In this document: positions 3,822 to 20,675 of the stretch, piece by piece | Position numbering within the stretch: the first letter of the stretch is position 1 | Layout: each line of letters begins with the position of its first letter | Source of the DNA: a virus | Direction: 5' to 3' (one strand) | IMG/VR virus record: IMGVR_UViG_3300013306_000028 | Coordinates: 1-41,797 of that record | DNA: 41,797 nt | The notes under the pieces: model-generated | What the model was told of the DNA's origin: nothing | What the model saw: the letters and a program-made list of their open reading frames with translations, nothing else | Databases searched by the model: none | Program-made: the position numbers and the translations under genes

Positions 3822-4102
3822 TGGCTAGTGACCTCGACCTCGACAATTGGTGGCGGTGGAATCCGGGCGTGAAGGTCGCCTTCCCTGGTGACATGCCGAC
3901 AGCGATGCCAACCCCGCGTTTTCGCCGCGTGGAACAACGCTGGACGGTGACTCGTGCAGGCTTGGACGGATTCCACGAATGGGTGAAACGCGAGGGGTGG
4001 ACCATCGACAGTCACCACATCGACAATCACAGCGACGGAACCCGCTCCGACCCGTGGTACATCTTCAACCTGTCGATGATGGTTGAGGAAGATCGTGGCT
4101 AG
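3821..4102 (+). CDS. Hypothetical protein upstream of the integrase
   Basis: 93 residues from ATG 3821 in a TGATGG junction with GAGG 8 bases before the ATG. It is rich in Trp and charged residues (WWRWNPGVKV, GFHEWVKREGWTI, HHIDNHSDG) and has no recognised family. It overlaps the integrase start by 8 bases (GTGGCTAG), so the two are translationally coupled. It could be a recombination accessory protein by position only. Confidence 0.65.
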   Translation: MASDLDLDNWWRWNPGVKVAFPGDMPTAMPTPRFRRVEQRWTVTRAGLDGFHEWVKREGWTIDSHHIDNHSDGTRSDPWYIFNLSMMVEEDRG

Positions 4103-5264
4103 TATCTCGTCGCGGAAGAACGCGAACGGTTCCGTAACCCACACCGTCCATTTCCGTATCGACGGGCAGTCGCGTAAAGAAACGTTCAAAGACTTGATCG
4201 CCGCCGAAAACTTCAAAGCCAAAGAAGAACTGCTCGGTGGGAAAGAAGCGCGCGCATGGTTGCAACGGCAAGCACACCGCACCGGACCGTCTGTCACGTT
4301 CGCTGAATGGGCGGAACGCTACCTCGACCCCGACACTGGCCTGCTCACCGGTATCGAACCTGGCACACGCGACCAATACCGGCGCGACACCATCAACGCA
4401 CTCAACCCAGTACTCGGTGACATGCCCATAGACGAGATTGACAAACCTGCTATCGGCAAATGGGTGACATGGCAAGAATCACAGGTTGCTGCACGTGGGC
4501 CACATAAAGGCCAACCGGTGTCCGCGAAAACGGTGAAGAACCGGCACGGGCTACTGTCCAACATTCTGCGGGCTGCTGTGGAGAACGGGTTACGACTCGA
4601 CAACCCGGCATACCGTACACGCCTATCTGCGGGCCTAACCGACGAAGCCGTGTTCCTGTCCGTGACAGACTACAACGCCCTGTACGAGGCCATTGCGGAC
4701 CGGTGGAAGCCTCTTGTAGCGTTCCTCGTCGGGTCACAATGCAGACTATCGGAAGCGCTCGCTCTTACGTGGGGTGACATCAACCGTGACACAGACCCAC
4801 CCACCGTCCGCATCATGAAAGCATGGAAACGCAACCCAGACGGGCCCGCACAAATCGGCACCACCAAATCGAAAAAAGGGCGCCGCACCGTTGCACTCTG
4901 GCCGGCGCTCGTCACCGAGCTGGGCAAACCCGGACGTGCGAAAGATCTTGTGTTCCACAACGACGACGGAACCCGCATCCCAGCACGCACCTTCGCCGGC
5001 GCATGGGAGAGGGCCATCCGAAAATCGGGCCTCGACCAAACGCCGCGCATCCACGACCTCAGACACACAGGTGTGTCCTGGTTGATCGCGGATGGTGTGC
5101 CGCTCCCGTTCATTCAGCAACGGGTTGGGCACGCGAACATCACAACGACCGTGCAGGTGTACGGTCACCTGTTGCCGGATGCTCATACGCGGATGGCTGA
5201 TTCGTTGTCACACACCCTGTCTAGGGTTGTCACCGACCACAAACAGATTGAGGATGCCCGCTGA
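4095..5264 (+). CDS. int: Tyrosine site-specific integrase
   Basis: 389 residues from GTG 4095 with GAGGAAG upstream. The N-terminal arm-binding region (about 1-60) and core-binding SAM-like domain (about 65-170) precede the catalytic domain. Catalytic residues are visible: Arg217 in SQCRLSE, a candidate Lys near 258-261 (TKSKKGRR), His320-x-x-Arg323 in HDLRHTGVSWL, His346 in RVGHANITTT and nucleophile Tyr356 in VQVYGHLL. It integrates the phage DNA at a tRNA 3' end; the attP candidate lies 1.2 kb upstream. The operon order places it behind operators c-e. The tail IEDAR ends in the recurring GCCCGCTGATGG junction. Confidence 0.95.
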   Translation: MASISSRKNANGSVTHTVHFRIDGQSRKETFKDLIAAENFKAKEELLGGKEARAWLQRQAHRTGPSVTFAEWAERYLDPDTGLLTGIEPGTRDQYRRDTINALNPVLGDMPIDEIDKPAIGKWVTWQESQVAARGPHKGQPVSAKTVKNRHGLLSNILRAAVENGLRLDNPAYRTRLSAGLTDEAVFLSVTDYNALYEAIADRWKPLVAFLVGSQCRLSEALALTWGDINRDTDPPTVRIMKAWKRNPDGPAQIGTTKSKKGRRTVALWPALVTELGKPGRAKDLVFHNDDGTRIPARTFAGAWERAIRKSGLDQTPRIHDLRHTGVSWLIADGVPLPFIQQRVGHANITTTVQVYGHLLPDAHTRMADSLSHTLSRVVTDHKQIEDAR

Positions 5265-5431
5265 TGGCTCATAACACCGTTTACGTTGTCGTTGATGATT
5301 ACTACGACAGCAGTTTCATCGGTCTTTACGGGACGCGGCGTGAGGCCGATGAAGCAGCCGGCGTTTACCGAGTAGTGATTGAGTACACCGTGGATTCTGA
5401 CGGAACCGTGACCGAGTTGGAGGCCCGCTGA
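5264..5431 (+). CDS. 55-residue hypothetical protein
   Basis: ATG 5264 overlaps the integrase stop (TGATG), and its own stop overlaps the next ATG at 5431 in the same way, with GAGGCCCGC providing the ribosome site. It starts MAHNTVYVVVDDYYDSSF and contains GTRREADEAAGVYR, similar to the N-terminal half of the 3303 product. It ends LEAR like several cassette proteins. Beta-strand-rich start plus helix; function unknown. Confidence 0.7.
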   Translation: MAHNTVYVVVDDYYDSSFIGLYGTRREADEAAGVYRVVIEYTVDSDGTVTELEAR

Positions 5432-6348
5432 TGTCACGAAACCGTACCGGAAACGTGACATGGGTAGTCGCACCCGTTGACTACCAAAAGGTATTCAGTA
5501 CCCGCACGGATACCCCAGTAGACAACCGGGTGTACCGTAAACACAAGAAAGCGCGGGACCGCCAGTTAGCCCCTGACGGTCCCGCTAAACCCACCATGAA
5601 GGAAGTCATGATGAGCCGTACAACACATTACCCGCAACCGATGGACCGTGGCTGGTACACCGTGTTCGGTTTGGCAGGCGTGTCAGCTGTGATCATGGTT
5701 GCTGTGATCGCCGCCCTGATCGGTCTCGCATCCACACTGTTGGCGCCTGCACCTGTGGCCGCGTCGGAACCTCCACGCATTCCCCCGCACATCAACGTCA
5801 CCCCCGTCCCGCTACCGGTCACGTTCGCCTCCGAAGGCGACAGCATCTCCGCTCTGCGTGACAACAACAATGTGCCCATCACATGGTCGTGGGTGCGTGA
5901 CGCTGTTGCTGAAGGGAACCTCACCTATGTGGGTGTGTATATGCGTGCCGGTGCTGCAACCCCTGAACTGTTGGCGCACGCGAAACCGACTGCTGCGAAG
6001 GTGATGGTGGTGATGGCTGGCACGAACGACGTGTCACAGCACCTCAGCATCTCCTCAACCCTGAACAGGATTGCCGCCATTTTTGGGCGTACTGGTGGGC
6101 GTGTGAAAATCCTGTCAGCGGTCGCCCCGAGGAACACGTTGACGGCTGAAACCAACCAACTCAACTACTGGTTGCAGAAACTGGCAGCACAACATCATTG
6201 GGTGTTCATCGACCCGTGGACTTCCGTCAGGGCTGCGAACGGTACATGGGTTCCTGGTGCGAACGCTGACGTAATCCACCCGTCCGCAGCAACCGGTGTG
6301 ATCGTCGGGCAAGTGCTACGTCAAACGATGCTGGCTTATGCTGGATGA
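5431..6348 (+). CDS. Membrane-anchored SGNH/GDSL hydrolase
   Basis: 305 residues from ATG 5431 (TGATG coupling); ATG 5608 or 5611 with AAGGAAG is an alternative, since MSRTTHYP there resembles the first start. A basic N-terminus is followed by one transmembrane helix (about 75-105, GLAGVSAVIMVAVIAALIGL) and a Pro-rich linker, predicting an extracytoplasmic domain. SGNH blocks are present: SEGDSIS (block I Ser), AGTNDV (block III Asn) and DVIHPS (block V Asp/His). Family members are esterases or O-acetyl hydrolases. Placed between the integrase and the end of the late operon, it is a good lysogenic-conversion candidate acting on the cell envelope. Substrate unknown. Confidence 0.8.
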   Translation: MSRNRTGNVTWVVAPVDYQKVFSTRTDTPVDNRVYRKHKKARDRQLAPDGPAKPTMKEVMMSRTTHYPQPMDRGWYTVFGLAGVSAVIMVAVIAALIGLASTLLAPAPVAASEPPRIPPHINVTPVPLPVTFASEGDSISALRDNNNVPITWSWVRDAVAEGNLTYVGVYMRAGAATPELLAHAKPTAAKVMVVMAGTNDVSQHLSISSTLNRIAAIFGRTGGRVKILSAVAPRNTLTAETNQLNYWLQKLAAQHHWVFIDPWTSVRAANGTWVPGANADVIHPSAATGVIVGQVLRQTMLAYAG

Positions 6349-8339: not shown

Positions 8340-9200
8340 TTATACGAGTGCGCCAGTGTCGTTATCGACGTTTCCCGAAATGATGTTCCCGGTGCTCCCA
8401 CCGAGAACGGGCATGTACGCGACCGGGCCGTAGTACCCGTAGTTGGGGAAAGTTCCGGCCATCGTTTTCGAGAACTTGTTGTTCGTGATCCGACAGTTCG
8501 TGACCGCACCACGGGTCTGGCCGGGACCGTAAATGCAATACCCGGCGCCAGACAGAAGGTTGTTGTCGATGAGAATGTCGGTCAGTGTCGAATTGCCTGT
8601 TTCGCGTTCGGCGGTGATGCATGACGTTTCCGTCTGCTTCACAATCACCGTGTTGTGTTGGATCACCCAATGCCCAACCTGCGACTCAAAGTCGATGCCG
8701 TCATTGTGTTCCGACCCGGAAAAGTACAGGTCGTGCACATAGTTGTCTTGGGCGGTGCACCAGTCCTTCCCGCGAATACCGTCCGAACTGCCGGACACAT
8801 TGTTGCGGGAAGCGACCGCATACGAGTTCATGATGAACGAACACTCGGAGGCGGGACCGGTGGTGAACGTGTTGTCGTAGATTTGCGCCCACGAGGATGA
8901 GGCGCCATCGACCATGAGTGGCCACGGGGTTGTTGATGTGAACTTGTTGTTGCGGACAATGATGCCGGGACCGGAAATGTACAGGTCACCGTTGCCGATC
9001 AGGTACCCGTCAAGGATGACTGGGTTCGCAACCGTCGAAGTCAGGTTCCACGGGCCCGTGTAAGCCTTGAGAGCAGCGACCTTAGTGCCCGTATTAGCCG
9101 CACTAGGAAACCCGGCGGCTACAGGATCAGTGACCGGCACCGAAGCAGTAAACGTCTTCCCGCCACGCGTGTACGTGACGGTGACCGTTTCCGTAGCCAT
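8340..9200 (-). CDS. Right-handed beta-helix spike/depolymerase-like protein
   Basis: 286 residues from ATG 9200. Short N-terminal domain (about 1-45), then a parallel beta-helix with regularly spaced turns: GPGIIVRNNKF, AQIYDNTF, VASRNNVSG, TAQDNYVHD, VIQHNTVIV, ILIDNNLLS, CRITNNKFS. Such pectate-lyase folds form tail spikes that bind or degrade surface polysaccharide. It overlaps the previous gene as TGATGG. Catalytic residues cannot be assigned from sequence alone. Confidence 0.8.
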   Translation of the reverse strand: MATETVTVTYTRGGKTFTASVPVTDPVAAGFPSAANTGTKVAALKAYTGPWNLTSTVANPVILDGYLIGNGDLYISGPGIIVRNNKFTSTTPWPLMVDGASSSWAQIYDNTFTTGPASECSFIMNSYAVASRNNVSGSSDGIRGKDWCTAQDNYVHDLYFSGSEHNDGIDFESQVGHWVIQHNTVIVKQTETSCITAERETGNSTLTDILIDNNLLSGAGYCIYGPGQTRGAVTNCRITNNKFSKTMAGTFPNYGYYGPVAYMPVLGGSTGNIISGNVDNDTGALV

Positions 9201-9983: not shown

Positions 9984-10058
9984 TCATTGGCAGGACTCGC
10001 ACCACAGATCCGTCATGGGATCTTCGGGCACGTAGTACTCGTCTTCGGGGTCCGTCAC
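9984..10058 (-). CDS. 24-residue acidic peptide with CxxC
   Basis: GTG 10058 overlaps the holin stop as GTGA. The peptide is very acidic (TDPEDEYYVPEDPMTD) and ends WCESCQ. Coupling to the holin gene and a metal-binding-like Cys pair support a real short gene; no strong ribosome site is present. Confidence 0.45.
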   Translation of the reverse strand: MTDPEDEYYVPEDPMTDLWCESCQ

Positions 10059-10285
10059 TTCGTGTTAGCTACAGCCAGACCACCAACAGGGATAGCAAGA
10101 TAGGCGACAACCGCCTGCGAACCCACCACAATCTCAGGGATGCTGTGACCGATACCAAGGAAATAGGCGGCTGCACCACCAACCAGGACAGCACCAACCG
10201 CGTAGATCGAATACACAACCTTGCGAATGGTTGCGGACGTGATGATCACACCGATACTCGGCGGGGTGGGAATAGGGTCAGACAT
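10055..10285 (-). CDS. Holin
   Basis: 76 residues from ATG 10285 with AAGGAG 6 bases upstream. Two hydrophobic helices (about residues 20-42, VVYSIYAVGAVLVGGAAAYFLG, and 50-72, IVVGSQAVVAYLAIPVGGLA) with short polar ends fit a small phage holin. It sits two genes after the M15 endolysin. It would form membrane lesions that release or trigger the endolysin. Assignment is by topology and context. Confidence 0.75.
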   Translation of the reverse strand: MSDPIPTPPSIGVIITSATIRKVVYSIYAVGAVLVGGAAAYFLGIGHSIPEIVVGSQAVVAYLAIPVGGLAVANTK

Positions 10286-10595
10286 TGTTGTCTCCTTCTT
10301 TACTGAGCCGGGTCATCAGCTCGTCAGTTTTCGTTTCCACCCGTGCAACAGCGTCCTTCACAGACGAACCGTTGTTGTAGTGGACTTCATGGTGAATGTC
10401 GTCAATGCGGTCGTTCGTGCGTTCAATGAACTCCGGCAAATCCGATAAGGCGTTGATCGTGTTCACGAATTGGGAAATGAACTTCCAGGCGGCAGGGATG
10501 CCCCGTATGGCGCCGAAGATGACACCGAGGACAACCGATACTGCGATCACCCATTGGAGCCACGGCCACGCCTGCGAGAAGTCGAGGCTAGGCAT
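10278..10595 (-). CDS. Membrane protein with coiled coil (DUF2746-like)
   Basis: 105 residues from ATG 10595. One N-terminal helix (about 12-35, PWLQWVIAVSVVLGVIFGAI) is followed by an amphipathic, coiled-coil-prone C-terminus. The block IDDIHHEVHYNNGSSVKDAV is the signature of a protein found beside holins in many actinophages. It may act as a second holin-like or regulatory lysis protein. It overlaps the holin gene by 8 bases. Confidence 0.7.
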   Translation of the reverse strand: MPSLDFSQAWPWLQWVIAVSVVLGVIFGAIRGIPAAWKFISQFVNTINALSDLPEFIERTNDRIDDIHHEVHYNNGSSVKDAVARVETKTDELMTRLSKEGDNNV

Positions 10596-10598
10596 CCC

Positions 10599-11279
10599 TT
10601 ACCACTTAGGGGCGGCGTTCACCGCAGCGGAAAGGGCGTCAGGGGTCGTCACAGACAGGGCAACACCCTGCGCAACAATCGCCTGATACTCGGCCAGTTT
10701 CAGTCCACGAAACGCACCATCCGAAAGGCGGTAAAGCCATACGGTGGCGTCAGCAGACGACTTGATGAGGGCGTAATCCATTAGCTTCTTCTTCCTAGGT
10801 TTCGGGGCATCCGTGATGGGTTTGACAGTGACGACAGCGGGGGCGTTGATGATCGTTCCTGGCGCGGTCAGGCACTCCCAATGCCACCGTTCATCGGACG
10901 CTTGACCGGTCGCCCACGAATACCCGTAGGCGGAAGCATTCGACTGCAACCAATTCCACACAGCAGCAGAAGACTCATACCCGGTCAGGTCAATTGCGCG
11001 ACCCCACCCATGATTCGAGGTACCCGGATACGCGGCAACGTTCCCTTTGCCCTGCTGGTACAGGTTGTAAAACTCAACCTGCGTCACATACGGGCGGTAA
11101 CAGGACGAACCAGGGGCCGGGTTGATGACCACGCCGGTAGCAGCCAGGCACGCGGCACGCATCCGCAACCACTGGGCTGCGGCAGTCGGCTCGAGGTAGT
11201 CTTCACGCCCGGAAACGTCCACCAGAATGTTGGTGTTGATGTGCCCGTTCGACAGGCCACCCCACGCAAGATTGATCAT
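10599..11279 (-). CDS. Endolysin, D,D/L,D-carboxypeptidase-type (peptidase M15)
   Basis: 226 residues from ATG 11279 with AGAGG upstream. Zinc ligands of the VanY/M15 fold are visible: His90 and Asp97 in SNHGWGRAIDL, and His133 in RWHWEC; Arg62 in YRPYVTQ matches the conserved Arg. The fold covers about residues 20-145. A basic linker (KPRKKK) leads to a 60-residue C-terminal domain (ALIKSSADATVWLYRL...) that probably binds the wall. It would cut peptidoglycan stem peptides. It overlaps a 21-codon gene whose start resembles a GH25 lysozyme. Confidence 0.88.
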   Translation of the reverse strand: MINLAWGGLSNGHINTNILVDVSGREDYLEPTAAAQWLRMRAACLAATGVVINPAPGSSCYRPYVTQVEFYNLYQQGKGNVAAYPGTSNHGWGRAIDLTGYESSAAVWNWLQSNASAYGYSWATGQASDERWHWECLTAPGTIINAPAVVTVKPITDAPKPRKKKLMDYALIKSSADATVWLYRLSDGAFRGLKLAEYQAIVAQGVALSVTTPDALSAAVNAAPKW

Positions 11280-11353: not shown

Positions 11354-13321
11354 TCAGGACAGGCCAACCCACGGCGCAGTAGTAGCCGCTGTCAGGGTCG
11401 GCAGCGTGCCGGGCAGGGTGGTGAGCGAAGTGCCGCCCGTCGCGAACCGGAAATCAGGGGAAGAGACGGTGCCGATGGTGCCCATACCGGAACCGTTCAC
11501 CCCACGGATCTGGGGTGAGGTGGTGCCGTTCCACAGGAACGCCACATACACAAACCCGGACTGCTCGGAGGTCGCGGTAGAAAGCGTCGTCTGCTTGTTA
11601 CCGGTCGAGTTCCACACACCCGACTGATCAGCTGACGACTGCAACAGGTTCAGGTTCGAGTCGTACACGCCCACAAAGTTCTGCGAAGCGGTCAACGTCG
11701 CACCAGCGGCAGAGATCTGGTACCAAATGTTCTTGATCGCACCGCCGCCATCAAGCGGCACCTTCACGACGAACAGGGTGCCAGCAGTCCACACCGCCTG
11801 GCTGATCGTCGCAAACGCAGGATCGAATGCTTCACCGAGAAGCATGTTCATGCCCGTAAGAGAAGACGAACCGTAGACGGTCAGCATGGCGCCGAGAAGG
11901 CCCGCGCACGTGTTCTGATGCCATTCCATCGGGCGGATACCGGACTGCAGGTTCGCCCCATAGTCGGTGGCGCCAGTAAACCGGTTACCCCGGAACCGCA
12001 TGGTCGCCTGCGTGCCTGCACCAATGTTGAGGCCGTACTTCATGTGCGAACCGGTGTCATTCACCGTGTTGTTTAGGAGCGTGATTCGGGTAGAGGCGGA
12101 ACCCTGAATGTCGATCCCGTAGTTCGTGGAAACCGTGTTCGCGGTTGCCGGGTCTTGTACCCGGTTGTGCGACAGGTCCAAATCGGTGGAGTCGGTGATG
12201 AAGATTCCGCGCTGCGAGGCGGAGATGGCGCGGTTGCCAGTCATGGTCAGGCCGGCGACATTCTGAATCACAATCCCGTTGCGTCCACCGCTGACACGGT
12301 TGCCCTCAATGATCCCGTCGGCGCCGTAGATGTACCGGATACCGTCACCGGCAGCAGTGTTGCAGTACACGGTGTTGTCGGAGATGATCACGCGTCGGCT
12401 GCGCTGGGTCAGCTCGGTGGTCACGTTGGTGACATGGATGCCGTGCGATCCGCAACGGGTGATGCTGTTACCAACGATCACAATGTCTTCAGCGTCAACG
12501 GAAGTGCCCGAGTGGCCGATCTGCAGTTTGATGCCCTCGAGGCCGGTGTCTTCAATCTGGTTTCCGTGGGCGGCGAACTCGCGGACACTGCCGAGGTAGA
12601 TTCCGTGCTGGCCAACAATGTTGAAAATGTGGTTGTTGCTGATGCGGATGCTGTCACAGTCGCCACCGACAACGCCCTGCGCCCACTGACTGATCGCACA
12701 CCCGGTCACCAGGCAGTCGTCGGCGCCGTCATCAATGAGGATGCCTGCACCAAAGTTGGAGGTTGTGTCAACGATGGGCGGGTGGCCGGGACCAACGATC
12801 TTGCACGCACTGATCACAACCCGTTTCGGAGTGAACCCGCCGCCCGACTTCATGACCCGAACACCCACGCCCGCGTAACCGGAAACGGTCACACCGGTCA
12901 CGTTGGCGTCATCCGAGGTTCCCGAAATCTGGATCGCAGTAGCCCCATAGACGGAGGACGAGTTCACCCAGTCGGTGCCCTTGCCGAGGAACTTACCGCC
13001 CCGGATCGAAACACCTGCAGTGTCAGCAATTGTGATCGCGGGGGTGAGGTCAACGGTCTGCTGCAGGGTTGCACCCGTGAGGTCGATGCTTGTCCCAGCA
13101 ATCGCCACTGACAGGGCCGAGGTGAGTGAGTACGTTCCGGGCGCGAACGCGACACGACTACCGGAGGTCACACCTGACAGAACCGTTTGGATTGCTGCCT
13201 GCGACATGCTCGGGTTGACCGAAACGGCGCGACCAAACTGGAACTGGTCACCCACGGCCCCCATCACGGCGGAGGGGAACAGGTAGGACAAGGAGTCAAC
13301 AGAAACGAGCCTGTTCGTCAT
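11354..13321 (-). CDS. Large beta-helix tail spike protein
   Basis: 655 residues from ATG 13321. The N-terminus (about 1-35) likely attaches to the tail; residues 40-470 form a right-handed beta-helix of the pectate-lyase/NosD type with repeated turns such as IRISNNHIF, FAAHGNQIED, IVIVGNSITRCG, VIISDNTVYC, GIIEGNRVSGG, LTMTGNRAIS, LDLSHNRVQD, ITLLNNTVND. The C-terminal 180 residues form a separate beta domain (FVVKVPLDGGGAIKNIWYQI; FVGVYDSNLNLLQSS), probably for trimerisation or receptor binding. Polysaccharide binding or cleavage is inferred. Confidence 0.85.
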   Translation of the reverse strand: MTNRLVSVDSLSYLFPSAVMGAVGDQFQFGRAVSVNPSMSQAAIQTVLSGVTSGSRVAFAPGTYSLTSALSVAIAGTSIDLTGATLQQTVDLTPAITIADTAGVSIRGGKFLGKGTDWVNSSSVYGATAIQISGTSDDANVTGVTVSGYAGVGVRVMKSGGGFTPKRVVISACKIVGPGHPPIVDTTSNFGAGILIDDGADDCLVTGCAISQWAQGVVGGDCDSIRISNNHIFNIVGQHGIYLGSVREFAAHGNQIEDTGLEGIKLQIGHSGTSVDAEDIVIVGNSITRCGSHGIHVTNVTTELTQRSRRVIISDNTVYCNTAAGDGIRYIYGADGIIEGNRVSGGRNGIVIQNVAGLTMTGNRAISASQRGIFITDSTDLDLSHNRVQDPATANTVSTNYGIDIQGSASTRITLLNNTVNDTGSHMKYGLNIGAGTQATMRFRGNRFTGATDYGANLQSGIRPMEWHQNTCAGLLGAMLTVYGSSSLTGMNMLLGEAFDPAFATISQAVWTAGTLFVVKVPLDGGGAIKNIWYQISAAGATLTASQNFVGVYDSNLNLLQSSADQSGVWNSTGNKQTTLSTATSEQSGFVYVAFLWNGTTSPQIRGVNGSGMGTIGTVSSPDFRFATGGTSLTTLPGTLPTLTAATTAPWVGLS

Positions 13322-16973: not shown

Positions 16974-19529
16974 TTAGGGTTGCCTCCTGTATCCGCGTGA
17001 AGCGGCACGATCCTGAGTGTTCTGGGCGGACGCAATCTGCTTCTGAATCATGAACTGGAACGGCTGACCATCAATCGTCCCCTGCAACGTGGCACCCTCA
17101 AGCGACACCGTCGTAGGACCGCCAGCATCCGCCGAACCCATCCCCAAGCGCCGGCCAGCATCAACCCACACCTTCCGGTTCTCAGCCTCCTTACCCGGCT
17201 TCCCGGAAATGAACGCCTCCCACCGGGTGTCCTTCTCAGCAAACTTGTACATCGGCGCACCACCCGAATAGATACCCGCACCGAAGCCACCATCCGCATA
17301 CGAGTACAGGCCACCGTTCGCATTCGCAATCGCAGGGCCACCCGCACGCACAATGATCGACTGACCCGCATTGAAACGCGCCTGCAGGTTCGCATACGCA
17401 GCATTGATGTTCGCAATAGCACTCAACGCCTGACTGTCATCCACATTCAGCAGCGTGTGAACAACCGGAGGGATCTTCCCCAAATGGTTGTTCACATAGT
17501 CATCCGCAGCAGCACCAGTAAGACCCATCTGCGCCGCGACTCCATACAGAGCCTTACGACCAGCAACCCAAGCCGCAGTCGTCTTCACCTGAGATGCAGT
17601 AGACGCCTCAGTGGCATCAATCACATCCTGCTGGGCATTCGCAACCGCATCCAAAGCCGTCTGATTGTCACGACCAGCCACAGTCGTCGCATCCAACGTT
17701 TTACCGTTCTTCGCAACCGACTGTGTAGCCTTCGTCGTCGCAGCAGTAACCGACTTCTGAGCATCCGCAAGAACACCCATCGCCTTCGCCGTGTTCAGGG
17801 CTTGCCGTTGCGCATTCTTCAAATCGCCAGACGACTGACCAACACCCTCAAGCACCTTGTTGATATCAGCCAAACCCTGACCAGAACCAGGAGAACCAAT
17901 CGAAGACGACTTCTGCCGTTGAGCCACAGCCGACGCCTGAATAGCCTGCAACTGTGCGAGCGCCTTCTGATTACCCAGCGACGCATCCACAACTGTTGCC
18001 AACGGAATACCCGACCGGTTCGCAGCCTCAATCGCCCCCGAATCATGCAGGGCTTTCACCGCAGCTGCACGAGTATTGTTCGTGATCGCACCAGTCTGCT
18101 TATCCAGAGAATCAGTAAGATCCTGCACACGAGCCGCAGCATCCGCCTGAGCCTTCAAGAACGCGCCACCAAGCAGGGCGGTAGCCGTTGTCAGTGCGAT
18201 ACCCCACGGGCCAGCCAGGAACCCAACCACGCCCTGCAGGGCAGACGCAATCCGCACCTGACCGACAGACTCGAGAGCACCAGCAAAAGCCAGCACCTTC
18301 GGCACACCCAGAAGGAACGCACCACCAGCAAGCCCAACAGCAGCAGTGATCAGCCCGAACGCAAGAGCACCCTGCTGCACCGGCACCGGCAGGTCGTTGA
18401 ACATCTTCAACAGGCCTGTCAGCGTTTTCGCAATATCCCGGAGAGGACCATTCGCAGCCGAACCGGCACGAATCAGATCCACATTGAACGCAGCAGACAG
18501 CTTCTTGATGTCACCCTGCAGGTTGTTCATCTTCCCGGACGCCTGACCAGCAGCGAACCCCTGATCGTTGACCTTGTTCGTCCAGTCCTCAATACCCTTC
18601 GCGCCCTCTTTATAGAGCACGTTCGCACCAGCGATAGCGCGGGCGCCGAAGATCGTTGCCAGGGTCGAGTTGCGCTGCGCCTCCGTCAGACCACCAAGCT
18701 TGTCGTGGAGCTGGCCAGCAAGGTTCGACACGCCAACAAACCGGCCCGCACTGTCGTACAGCGAAATGCCAAGATCCTTCATGTCCCCGGCAGCTTCCTT
18801 GGACGGGTTGGCCAGTTTCAGAAGCATCTGCCGAAGGTCAGTACCAGCAACCTCACCGATCAGACCAGCGTTCGCGAACGCCGACAGGGTACCGATCGTT
18901 TCATCCAGCGAGATGCCGAACTGGGATGCGACCAGACCACCCGACTTGAGGGCCTCACCGAGATCACCGACACCACCAAGCGCCTTATCCGCACCAGCAG
19001 CAAGCAGGTCAGCCACGTGAGGGATGTCAGCACCCTGCAGGTTGAACTGGGTCAGAGCAATCGTCGCAATCTCAGTCGCCTTACCCACATCAATCTGACC
19101 AGCAGCAGCCAACTGCAGAGCACCCGCAAGAGCACCACCCATGATGTCCTTGACCGCAATACCAGCCTTGACAAGCTCAGTCTCAGCATCCGCAACCTCA
19201 TTCGCGGAAAACCCGATGTTCTGACCCATCGTCAACGCAGCCTCGGAAAGCTGCTTCATCTCACCAGCAGTCGCATGCGACAGGGTTTGAACAAGCGACA
19301 TCTTCGCGTCGAACTCAGCAAACGACTTGATCGCCAAACCAACACCAACCGCCGCCACAGTCCCAATAGCAAGGAGGGCCACACCGAGCTGCTTGACGTT
19401 CTCCTTCTGCGCAGCCAGCTTCTTGGCCTCATCGGTGGTGGTCTTCGTCGCCAGAGACGCCTTCTGAAGCCCAGCAATATAGTTGCTGACCTCAGCCACA
19501 AGAGTGACCTTGGTGGTCCTGTCGGTCAA
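16974..19529 (-). CDS. Tail tape measure protein
   Basis: 851 residues from TTG 19529, seven bases after GGAGG (an upstream frame to 19628 lacks coding character and overlaps the moron promoter). N-terminal coiled coil (about 15-60), the TP901-type core (NEVADAETELVKAGIAVKDI, GTDLRQMLLKLANPSKEAAG, TLATIFGARAIAGANVLYKE) and two hydrophobic stretches (LLAIGTVAAVGVGLAIKSF; ALAFGLITAAVGLAGGAFLL). It sets tail length: at about 1.5 A per residue, 851 residues suggest a tail near 125-130 nm. No lytic transglycosylase or peptidase motif seen. Confidence 0.93.
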   Translation of the reverse strand: MTDRTTKVTLVAEVSNYIAGLQKASLATKTTTDEAKKLAAQKENVKQLGVALLAIGTVAAVGVGLAIKSFAEFDAKMSLVQTLSHATAGEMKQLSEAALTMGQNIGFSANEVADAETELVKAGIAVKDIMGGALAGALQLAAAGQIDVGKATEIATIALTQFNLQGADIPHVADLLAAGADKALGGVGDLGEALKSGGLVASQFGISLDETIGTLSAFANAGLIGEVAGTDLRQMLLKLANPSKEAAGDMKDLGISLYDSAGRFVGVSNLAGQLHDKLGGLTEAQRNSTLATIFGARAIAGANVLYKEGAKGIEDWTNKVNDQGFAAGQASGKMNNLQGDIKKLSAAFNVDLIRAGSAANGPLRDIAKTLTGLLKMFNDLPVPVQQGALAFGLITAAVGLAGGAFLLGVPKVLAFAGALESVGQVRIASALQGVVGFLAGPWGIALTTATALLGGAFLKAQADAAARVQDLTDSLDKQTGAITNNTRAAAVKALHDSGAIEAANRSGIPLATVVDASLGNQKALAQLQAIQASAVAQRQKSSSIGSPGSGQGLADINKVLEGVGQSSGDLKNAQRQALNTAKAMGVLADAQKSVTAATTKATQSVAKNGKTLDATTVAGRDNQTALDAVANAQQDVIDATEASTASQVKTTAAWVAGRKALYGVAAQMGLTGAAADDYVNNHLGKIPPVVHTLLNVDDSQALSAIANINAAYANLQARFNAGQSIIVRAGGPAIANANGGLYSYADGGFGAGIYSGGAPMYKFAEKDTRWEAFISGKPGKEAENRKVWVDAGRRLGMGSADAGGPTTVSLEGATLQGTIDGQPFQFMIQKQIASAQNTQDRAASRGYRRQP

Positions 19530-19591
19530 AAGGACCACCTCCACGCATTGAAATTGGGTGCTAGCACTGATACGCCAAAAAAGTGGGCGCG

Positions 19592-19607
19592 TAGAATCTG
19601 TGATATG
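19592..19607 (+). promoter_or_regulatory. Promoter for leaderless moron gene
   Basis: TAGAAT (19592-19597) lies 7 bases before ATG 19605, so transcription should start on the start codon. A weak -35 (CTGATA, 19567-19572) is visible with a long spacer. There is no Shine-Dalgarno sequence before the ATG. This matches the leaderless layout of the HTH gene at 626. Confidence 0.5.
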
Positions 19608-19880
19608 AGCGAAACGCAGATGACCCACAAGAACGGCGCAGCATACGCATTGCCTGTCATCGGGGCATTGGCGGCAGTGATCGGCATCATCCTTTGGATC
19701 GCCGGCACAAACCAGCTAGCTCACGACACCGCCGTGAACAGCTTCTCGAGCGCCCTCGGAGGGCTGACAACCGGCAACACCAGCGGCGACCAAATCATGA
19801 TCTTCGCCGGCATTGCACTACTCGTCGTCGGGGTGATCCTGCTGCTCGTCCGCCTCATCATTGCCGCGGTACGTAATTGA
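19605..19880 (+). CDS. Two-helix membrane protein, divergent moron in the tail operon
   Basis: 91 residues from ATG 19605. The first helix lies at about 14-34 (ALPVIGALAAVIGIILWIAG) and the second at about 64-88 (IMIFAGIALLVVGVILLLVRLII); a loop of about 28 residues contains the NSFSSALGGLTTGNTSGDQ segment. It is the only plus-strand gene between 6.5 and 41.8 kb, set between the chaperones and the tape measure, with a promoter giving a leaderless message. Its last 23 bases overlap the chaperone 3' end. Position and topology match the HK97 gp15 superinfection-exclusion moron, so expression from the prophage is likely. No sequence homology is claimed. Confidence 0.75.
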   Translation: MSETQMTHKNGAAYALPVIGALAAVIGIILWIAGTNQLAHDTAVNSFSSALGGLTTGNTSGDQIMIFAGIALLVVGVILLLVRLIIAAVRN

Positions 19881-20675
19881 TGCCCTCCACCCGCTGAACC
19901 GACCACCGGAACCCATGCATCGGATCGTCAGGGTACGTCTTCTGAAGTAAAGCCTGCTCCCGCTCAACCGCAGCAGCAGCATGGTTGACCCGGTAAGACG
20001 CCTCATAGTGATACTTGGCGTTCCTATCCACGGCCCCATTGGCGTCATCAGACATGGCTTCTTCGATCACTTCGCCGTACTGGCCGATCCCATCTTTATA
20101 CGCCAGGTACGCGAGGAACTTTGCGCGCTCCTCCGGGGTGAATTCCGGTTCACGGGTAGTCACAGAAGACACCAACCGGTCGCCCTCATAGATGTACTCA
20201 GTGAACTCGCGTGGCTCCCACCCGTTCAAACGACGGTGGGAAATCCGCAGCTCGAGGGCTAGTCTGAGTTCCGCTTCCGCTCGCCCTCGGACGCTTTTTT
20301 TAGCGCTTCCACCTCAGCCGCAGGATCGTACTCATTCAGGGCGAAAATGGCGTCACCGATACGTGACACGGTGGAGCCGGCGCCCTTGAAAATGGCCCGC
20401 CACTGATCTTCGGTCACATCCACGAGCTGGTCATCCTCAACAAGGTGCCCGGTGGCCTGAGCCACAATCGGAACCAGCGCACGCAGGTTGTACCCGTAAC
20501 GCATGTCCAACAGCACACCAGGACGCGCCGTGGCGGCGTCACAAGCAAGCGTCCACTCGGTACCATCCATGCGTTCAAAACGCAGCACGTACAGGTGGTT
20601 GTTCAACGAAATCTCAACATCGCGGGTGGGCTTCTCAGCCTCAAACTCCGCCTTCAGATCGTCAGCAAAACTCAT
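19858..20675 (-). CDS. Tail assembly chaperone, long form by -1 frameshift
   Basis: Ribosomes starting at 20675 decode 127 codons to the slippery run at 20295-20301, slip back one base and continue in the frame that runs to TGA 19858, giving 272 residues. The added part reads SVRGRAEAELRLALELRISH and then RRLNGWEPREFTEYIYEGD. The separate frame beginning at 20229 has no proper start, because its first codon is the TTG of that continuous segment. This is the lambda G/GT arrangement: the long form binds the tape measure while the tail shaft polymerises. Confidence 0.88.
20259..20675 (-). CDS. Tail assembly chaperone, short form
   Basis: 138 residues from ATG 20675, ending at TAG 20259 when no frameshift occurs. 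It starts SFADDLKAEFEAEKPTRDVE, contains LYVLRFERMDGTEWTLACDA and ends in a charged tail EALKKASEGERKRNSD. Length, position between major tail protein and tape measure, and the slippery heptamer near its end identify it as the G-like chaperone. Confidence 0.88.
   Translation of the reverse strand: MSFADDLKAEFEAEKPTRDVEISLNNHLYVLRFERMDGTEWTLACDAATARPGVLLDMRYGYNLRALVPIVAQATGHLVEDDQLVDVTEDQWRAIFKGAGSTVSRIGDAIFALNEYDPAAEVEALKKASEGERKRNSD
20295..20301 (-). other. -1 ribosomal frameshift site (A AAA AAA)
   Basis: On the minus strand CTA-AAA-AAA-GCG gives the heptamer A AAA AAA in the exact X XXY YYZ phase of the chaperone frame. A one-base backward slip enters the frame that continues for 145 codons. 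Confidence 0.85.

What the first reader, a model, noticed from the sequence alone, without database searches (positions are those of the whole stretch)
19592..19880. Divergent leaderless membrane moron where HK97 carries its superinfection-exclusion gene
A two-helix protein of 91 residues is the only plus-strand gene inside a 35 kb leftward block. TAGAAT 7 bases before its ATG predicts a leaderless message independent of the late operon. It lies exactly between tail chaperones and tape measure, the site of the HK97 gp15 moron. I infer expression from the prophage and a role in blocking DNA entry of incoming phages.
Basis: partly seen in the sequence, partly recalled or inferred. Interest (0 to 1): 0.8.

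Follow-up and report, generated by a model that had tools for sequence, protein, structure and literature searches.

The report
Antisense membrane gene beside tape-measure gene
A small membrane-protein gene sits backwards between two tail genes of a temperate bacterial virus, and dozens of related viruses keep an often unrelated membrane or lipid-anchored protein gene in the same spot behind the same kind of leaderless start, which looks like an exchangeable slot for proteins that probably block rival phages in lysogens.

Summary
Window 19605-19880 (+) encodes 91 residues with two hydrophobic helices. TAGAAT ends 7 nt before the ATG. The gene fills a 328-nt gap between the frameshifted tail chaperone and the tape-measure gene (TMP), both on the minus strand. 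The phage has an integrase.

The pattern is general. Among 138 distinct TMP-relative loci, 38 carry an antisense leaderless (TANNNT 6-7 nt before the start codon) membrane or lipoprotein ORF starting 25-120 nt upstream of TMP. Control windows on the same strand gave 4 of 5,617. The proteins fall into about 21 similarity groups. Close relatives lack the insert, and phages with 86-89% identical TMPs can carry unrelated proteins. Eleven of 14 isolated phages inspected have it annotated, without function.

HK97 gp15, a known exclusion moron, is at the same site but on the same strand as its late operon, with one helix and no sequence similarity.

Best reading: an exchange slot for lysogen-expressed, outward-facing membrane proteins that probably act as superinfection exclusion. 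Location, architecture and exchange are shown. Transcription and exclusion are inferred. P0001 itself has only one clear homologue, a chromosomal gene (49%). No paper I could reach describes the slot.

The parts
19605..19880 (+). Antisense moron gene, 91 aa (P0001), two predicted membrane helices with a 30-residue, net -2 loop between them carrying the NQLxHD motif
19592..19597 (+). TAGAAT, TANNNT-type -10 element 7 nt before the ATG (predicted leaderless start); shared with L002, whose encoded protein is unrelated
19530..19604 (.). 75-nt divergent intergenic region holding the antisense promoter and the TMP ribosome-binding site (GGAGGTGG at 19542-19535, minus strand)
16974..19529 (-). Tail tape-measure protein gene, TTG start (PF10145)
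19858..20301 (-). Frameshift extension (T part) of the tail assembly chaperone, ending 23 nt inside the antisense gene; slippery A7 on the minus strand at 20295-20301 (frameshift inferred from sequence)
20259..20675 (-). Tail assembly chaperone, G part
4083..5264 (+). Tyrosine integrase (PF00589), marks the phage as temperate
10599..11279 (-). Peptidase-like endolysin candidate; with the membrane ORFs 10055-10285 and 10278-10595 (minus) it forms a separate candidate lysis cassette
   Evidence: assignment partly by reading the sequence

Best explanation
The gene is one occupant of an exchangeable antisense moron slot between the tail chaperone and tape-measure genes of temperate actinobacterial siphophages. 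A host-type TANNNT promoter makes a leaderless mRNA from the integrated prophage while the late operon is silent (inferred). The product is a two-helix hairpin with both ends inside and a loop on the outer face of the cytoplasmic membrane; other occupants are small membrane proteins or lipoproteins facing the same side (predicted). It most likely works as superinfection exclusion, interfering with tape-measure-dependent DNA entry of incoming siphophages (inferred by analogy). In lytic growth, late transcription running across the gene in the opposite direction would suppress it (inferred).
For: 38 of 138 loci have a leaderless membrane ORF at this spot against 4 of 5,617 control windows. Of all antisense ATG ORFs of 45-140 aa, 38 of 114 at the site versus 6 of 2,557 elsewhere have TANNNT 6-7 nt upstream, and 79 of 114 versus 344 of 2,557 are hydrophobic. 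The proteins form about 21 groups, nine of the 39 with a convincing lipoprotein start. Filled gaps are 181-457 nt with one exception; gaps without a called gene are mostly under 60 nt; pairs with 85-86% identical TMP differ by presence or absence of the insert. WIN/L002 (86% TMP identity) and L081/L083 (89%) carry unrelated proteins; L072/L080 (96%) carry proteins 46% identical. In 32 two-helix members the positive charges sit on both tails and not in the loop (3.06/0.38/2.69). Twelve of the 13 tested leaderless-gene records of 35 kb or more, the window included, have a tyrosine integrase. Isolated A. globiformis phages carry the gene in the same place, and PeggyLeg03 is annotated with integrases. 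[quoted passage not shown] TANNNT is the dominant -10 motif in M. tuberculosis, with no -35 motif (PMC3898074).
Against: No phenotype or transcript is known for any member. P0001 resembles no characterised exclusion protein. Its one clear homologue (49%) is a host chromosomal gene away from any recognisable TMP, so the family may have another cellular role. Powerpuff lysogens are immune to superinfection yet that phage lacks the slot gene (PMC8758107), so it is not needed for exclusion. Integrases are also common in the records without the slot gene, so temperate lifestyle does not discriminate, and one slot-bearing record of about 40 kb lacks a detected tyrosine integrase (L085). Some isolates have a short leader with an SD-like stretch instead of a leaderless start.
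Confidence: 0.5

Rival explanations
1. The slot carries lysogenic-conversion genes that alter the host envelope or physiology for reasons other than excluding phages.
For: The clear P0001 homologue is an isolated chromosomal gene with its own TACCAT-type leaderless start. Two occupants are DUF732 lipoproteins, a family of unknown function. Other temperate-phage cargo is present in the window: a GDSL lipase gene beside the integrase.
Against: It does not explain why the slot is tied to the tape-measure gene or why neighbours with near-identical TMP exchange the protein so fast.
Confidence: 0.22
2. It is part of lysis control: an extra holin or antiholin (two-helix members) or spanin-like lipoprotein.
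For: Two-helix, both-ends-in topology also fits class II holins (general knowledge); some lipoprotein members weakly hit Rz-like spanin profiles, E 0.02-0.09.
Against: The window has its own endolysin candidate with adjoining membrane ORFs, as does PeggyLeg03. The gene opposes the late operon and has a host-type promoter. The weak spanin hits lie mostly in the signal-peptide region.
Confidence: 0.08
3. The promoter matters, not the protein: antisense transcription represses tail genes in the lysogen.
For: The -10 is conserved between WIN and L002 while the protein is not; the promoter lies in the TMP upstream region.
Against: The transcript runs away from TMP and into the 3' end of the chaperone gene. 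Reading frames stay open, hydrophobic and charge-patterned in about 21 groups, which needs selection on protein.
Confidence: 0.07
4. The ORF is a chance open frame in a spacer.
For: Codon usage does not match the late genes, it is the end of a longer antisense open frame of 807 codons, and no close homologue was found in phages.
Against: The recurrence at the site, the 49% identical homologue with the same two-helix layout, and the clean insertion against empty sites.
Confidence: 0.03

Closest known systems
HK97 gp15 superinfection-exclusion moron
   Same: Small predicted membrane protein encoded exactly between the frameshifted tail chaperone and the tape-measure gene of a temperate siphophage.
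   Different: HK97 gp15 is on the same strand as the late operon, 62 aa with one N-terminal hydrophobic stretch, and has an annotated terminator downstream. Ours is antisense, 91 aa with two helices, has no detected terminator, and no sequence similarity.
Ltp-type superinfection-exclusion lipoproteins (TP-J34)
   Same: Prophage-expressed protein on the outer face of the cytoplasmic membrane acting against tape-measure-dependent DNA injection (PMC3952083, PMC10883804); several slot occupants are lipoproteins.
   Different: ltp lies in the lysogeny module, not beside the tape-measure gene. The window protein has no lipobox, and Pfam found no known exclusion domain in the slot lipoproteins.
Reverse-strand hypothetical/membrane protein genes of Arthrobacter globiformis phages (PeggyLeg03 gp17, Tiff81 gp19, Anekin gp17, Seahorse gp19, Auxilium gp18, Hestia gp18, Faja gp18, TripleJ gp17, EvePickles gp18, Kukla gp16)
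   Same: Same site, same antisense orientation, small two-helix proteins, related tape-measure genes.
   Different: No clear sequence relation to P0001 was seen; some use an SD-type leader; function not annotated.

Membership tests
HK97 gp15-type superinfection-exclusion moron | Located between tail chaperone and tape-measure gene | tested here: met
HK97 gp15-type superinfection-exclusion moron | Small predicted inner-membrane protein | tested here: met
HK97 gp15-type superinfection-exclusion moron | Same orientation as the late operon, as in HK97 | tested here: not met
   Antisense here; sense in HK97
HK97 gp15-type superinfection-exclusion moron | Own promoter and terminator | tested here: inconclusive
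   TANNNT element at leaderless spacing; no sigma-70-type pair, no terminator for this gene
HK97 gp15-type superinfection-exclusion moron | Sequence homology to gp15 | tested here: not met
   No alignment
HK97 gp15-type superinfection-exclusion moron | Blocks DNA entry, tape-measure-dependent escape | not testable with these tools
   needs plating and injection assays
Ltp-type exclusion lipoprotein | Lipobox signal peptide | tested here: not met
   P0001 has none; other occupants of the slot do
Ltp-type exclusion lipoprotein | Gene in the lysogeny module | tested here: not met
   Gene is inside the tail operon, 14 kb from the integrase
Actinobacterial leaderless gene | TANNNT -10 with 6-7 nt to the start codon | tested here: met
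   the transcript start itself was not measured
Antisense tape-measure slot (pattern defined here) | Reverse-strand membrane or lipoprotein ORF starting 25-120 nt upstream of TMP behind a TANNNT element | tested here: met

The most novel reading that the evidence does not exclude
Temperate actinobacterial siphophages have a dedicated, rapidly exchanging exclusion locus physically linked to the tape-measure gene but transcribed in the opposite direction from a leaderless host promoter. It is on in lysogens and shut off by convergent late transcription in lytic growth, so that exclusion specificity travels with the tail gene it concerns.
Probability: 0.4. Interest if true: 0.78.

Novelty: new variant of a known kind. 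Interest (0 to 1): 0.62.

Why it matters
If true, the position alone (reverse strand, just upstream of the tape-measure start, leaderless) would point to candidate superinfection-exclusion genes that sequence searches miss, because the proteins are short, hydrophobic and mostly unrelated to each other. Low-complexity masking probably hides them: tblastn did not report PeggyLeg03 gp17 with a query about 68% identical to it. The isolated A. globiformis phages make the function directly testable in a laboratory host.

Tried and rejected
Direct homologue searches of P0001 in phages, viral contigs and genome contigs were empty. These are weak negatives: the same kind of search with the L067 protein missed the 68% identical PeggyLeg03 gp17, probably because of low-complexity masking. 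A profile of P0001 plus its homologue in 396 genomes of the order found nothing. The idea that the slot explains repressor-less immunity of Powerpuff was rejected: it has a 12-nt empty site. A recurrent TTGAGTTGT stretch upstream of some members looked like an operator but occurs once in PeggyLeg03, so it was dropped. Codon-usage scoring was not useful for this gene, nor for other plus-strand genes such as the integrase. The single-sequence structure model is two helices at low confidence (pLDDT 68), so no fold search was run. The L041 protein, 28% identical in BLAST, was not accepted as a homologue. Pfam, PHROGs, PADLOC and PDB gave nothing for P0001.

Full report
What is there. The window is a 41.8-kb IMG/VR virus record. 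Most identified genes run leftward: terminase, portal, tail tube, chaperone, tape measure and minor tail genes. A tyrosine integrase at 4083-5264 (+) marks it as temperate. Between the chaperone and the tape-measure gene there is a 328-nt gap with one gene on the plus strand, 19605-19880. It encodes 91 residues: MSETQMTHKNGAAYALPVIGALAAVIGIILWIAGTNQLAHDTAVNSFSSALGGLTTGNTSGDQIMIFAGIALLVVGVILLLVRLIIAAVRN. It has two hydrophobic segments with a 30-residue loop of net charge -2 and positive charges at the C-terminal tail. TAGAAT at 19592-19597 leaves 7 nt to the ATG. The tape-measure gene starts at TTG 19529 behind GGAGGTGG, so the two genes diverge across 75 nt. The chaperone's frameshift product ends at 19858, 23 nt inside the antisense gene. 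Codon-position GC of 0.59/0.44/0.77 is coding-like, although synonymous usage does not match the late genes.

Is it more than chance? I collected loci encoding relatives of the tape-measure N-terminus from viral contigs and from bacterial genomes and located the tape-measure start in each. In 138 distinct loci, 38 carry an antisense ORF with a membrane segment and TANNNT 6-7 nt before the start codon, within 25-120 nt upstream of the tape-measure start. In 5,617 control windows on the same strand there were 4 (Fisher p about 1e-59; loci are related by descent, so the p-value overstates independence). Counting all antisense ATG ORFs of 45-140 aa, 38 of 114 at the site against 6 of 2,557 elsewhere have the element at leaderless spacing; 79 of 114 against 344 of 2,557 are hydrophobic. 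The feature is real and general.

What occupies the slot. The 39 leaderless members listed fall into about 21 groups by BLAST. Most are 55-105-residue proteins with one or two membrane helices. Nine have a convincing lipoprotein start (L005, L049, L051, L054, L060, L064, L076, L090, L155). Two of the lipoproteins contain DUF732. In 32 two-helix members the mean number of positive residues is 3.06 in the N tail, 0.38 in the loop and 2.69 in the C tail, which predicts both ends inside and a loop outside. Lipoproteins face the same side. For P0001, a search of 300 genomes of the family of the L097 host (Leifsonia) found one clear homologue, 49% identical, in a chromosome away from any recognisable tape-measure gene. 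Both proteins share GxNQLxHD in the loop, and the homologue has TACCAT 7 nt before its own ATG.

Insertion and exchange. Where the chaperone end could be recognised, filled gaps are 181-457 nt (one exception, 13 nt, is probably a misread). Gaps without a called gene are mostly below 60 nt; part of the remainder hold hydrophobic ORFs without the TANNNT element (for example L011, L058, L086). Pairs with 85-86% identical tape-measure N-termini differ by presence or absence (L007/L004, L049/L094). WIN and L002 share 86% of the first 400 tape-measure residues and the stretch GCGCGTAGAAT, but the proteins are unrelated; L081/L083 share 89% with unrelated proteins; L072/L080 share 96% with proteins 46% identical. 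This is the behaviour of a cassette under exchange or rapid divergence.

Cultured phages. Isolated A. globiformis phages carry it: PeggyLeg03 gp17, Tiff81 gp19, Anekin gp17, Seahorse gp19, Auxilium gp18, Hestia gp18, Faja gp18, TripleJ gp17, EvePickles gp18 and Kukla gp16, plus Microbacterium phage Footloose gp15, annotated as hypothetical or membrane protein. In Footloose an HNH endonuclease gene lies between it and the tape-measure gene. Pitbull has an unannotated ORF there; Bbif-1 and Powerpuff have none annotated. PeggyLeg03 carries annotated integrases. Several of these isolates use a short leader with an SD-like stretch instead of a leaderless start.

How it probably works. Shown: position, orientation, membrane nature, promoter-like element, exchange, temperate context. 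Inferred: transcription in lysogens, outward topology, exclusion, suppression in lytic growth. The case for exclusion rests on three points. First, HK97 gp15, a known exclusion protein, is at exactly this site. [quoted passage not shown] Third, the known examples act in a tape-measure-dependent way: TP-J34 exclusion is overcome by changes in the tape measure, and HK97 exclusion by a tail-tube/tape-measure exchange (PMC10883804). TANNNT is the dominant -10 motif in M. tuberculosis, where no -35 motif was found (PMC3898074), which fits the lack of a sigma-70-type pair here. Twelve of 13 tested slot-bearing records of 35 kb or more have an integrase, but so do most records without the slot gene, so this does not discriminate.

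Membership and novelty. It is not an HK97 gp15 homologue: no alignment, opposite orientation relative to the late operon, two helices against one. It is not an Ltp lipoprotein. It may work like either. I found no description of an antisense leaderless slot at the tape-measure gene in the papers I could search; the library is partial and the genes themselves are already annotated in GenBank. I therefore call it a new variant of a known kind.

Noticed in passing
window 5431-6348 (+): A GDSL-type lipase/acylhydrolase with an internal hydrophobic segment is encoded next to the integrase on the plus strand: a possible second lysogenic-conversion gene.
   Followed up: no
window 11354-13321 and 8340-9200 (-): Two right-handed beta-helix proteins (PF13229, NosD-like) in the tail region, likely tail spikes acting on surface polysaccharide.
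   Followed up: no
L049, L060: Slot lipoproteins containing DUF732, a family of unknown function; a phage context could hint at its role.
   Followed up: partly
L168 490-1406 (Footloose): The reverse gene is followed by an HNH endonuclease gene before the tape measure, so the slot can also collect other inserts.
   Followed up: no
L215 5482-5916: Chromosomal gene 49% identical to the window protein over the membrane part, with a TACCAT leaderless-type start and no recognisable tape-measure gene nearby.
   Followed up: partly
search tools: The masked tblastn search with the L067 protein missed the 68% identical PeggyLeg03 gp17, so negative homology results for short membrane proteins in these collections are unreliable.
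   Followed up: yes
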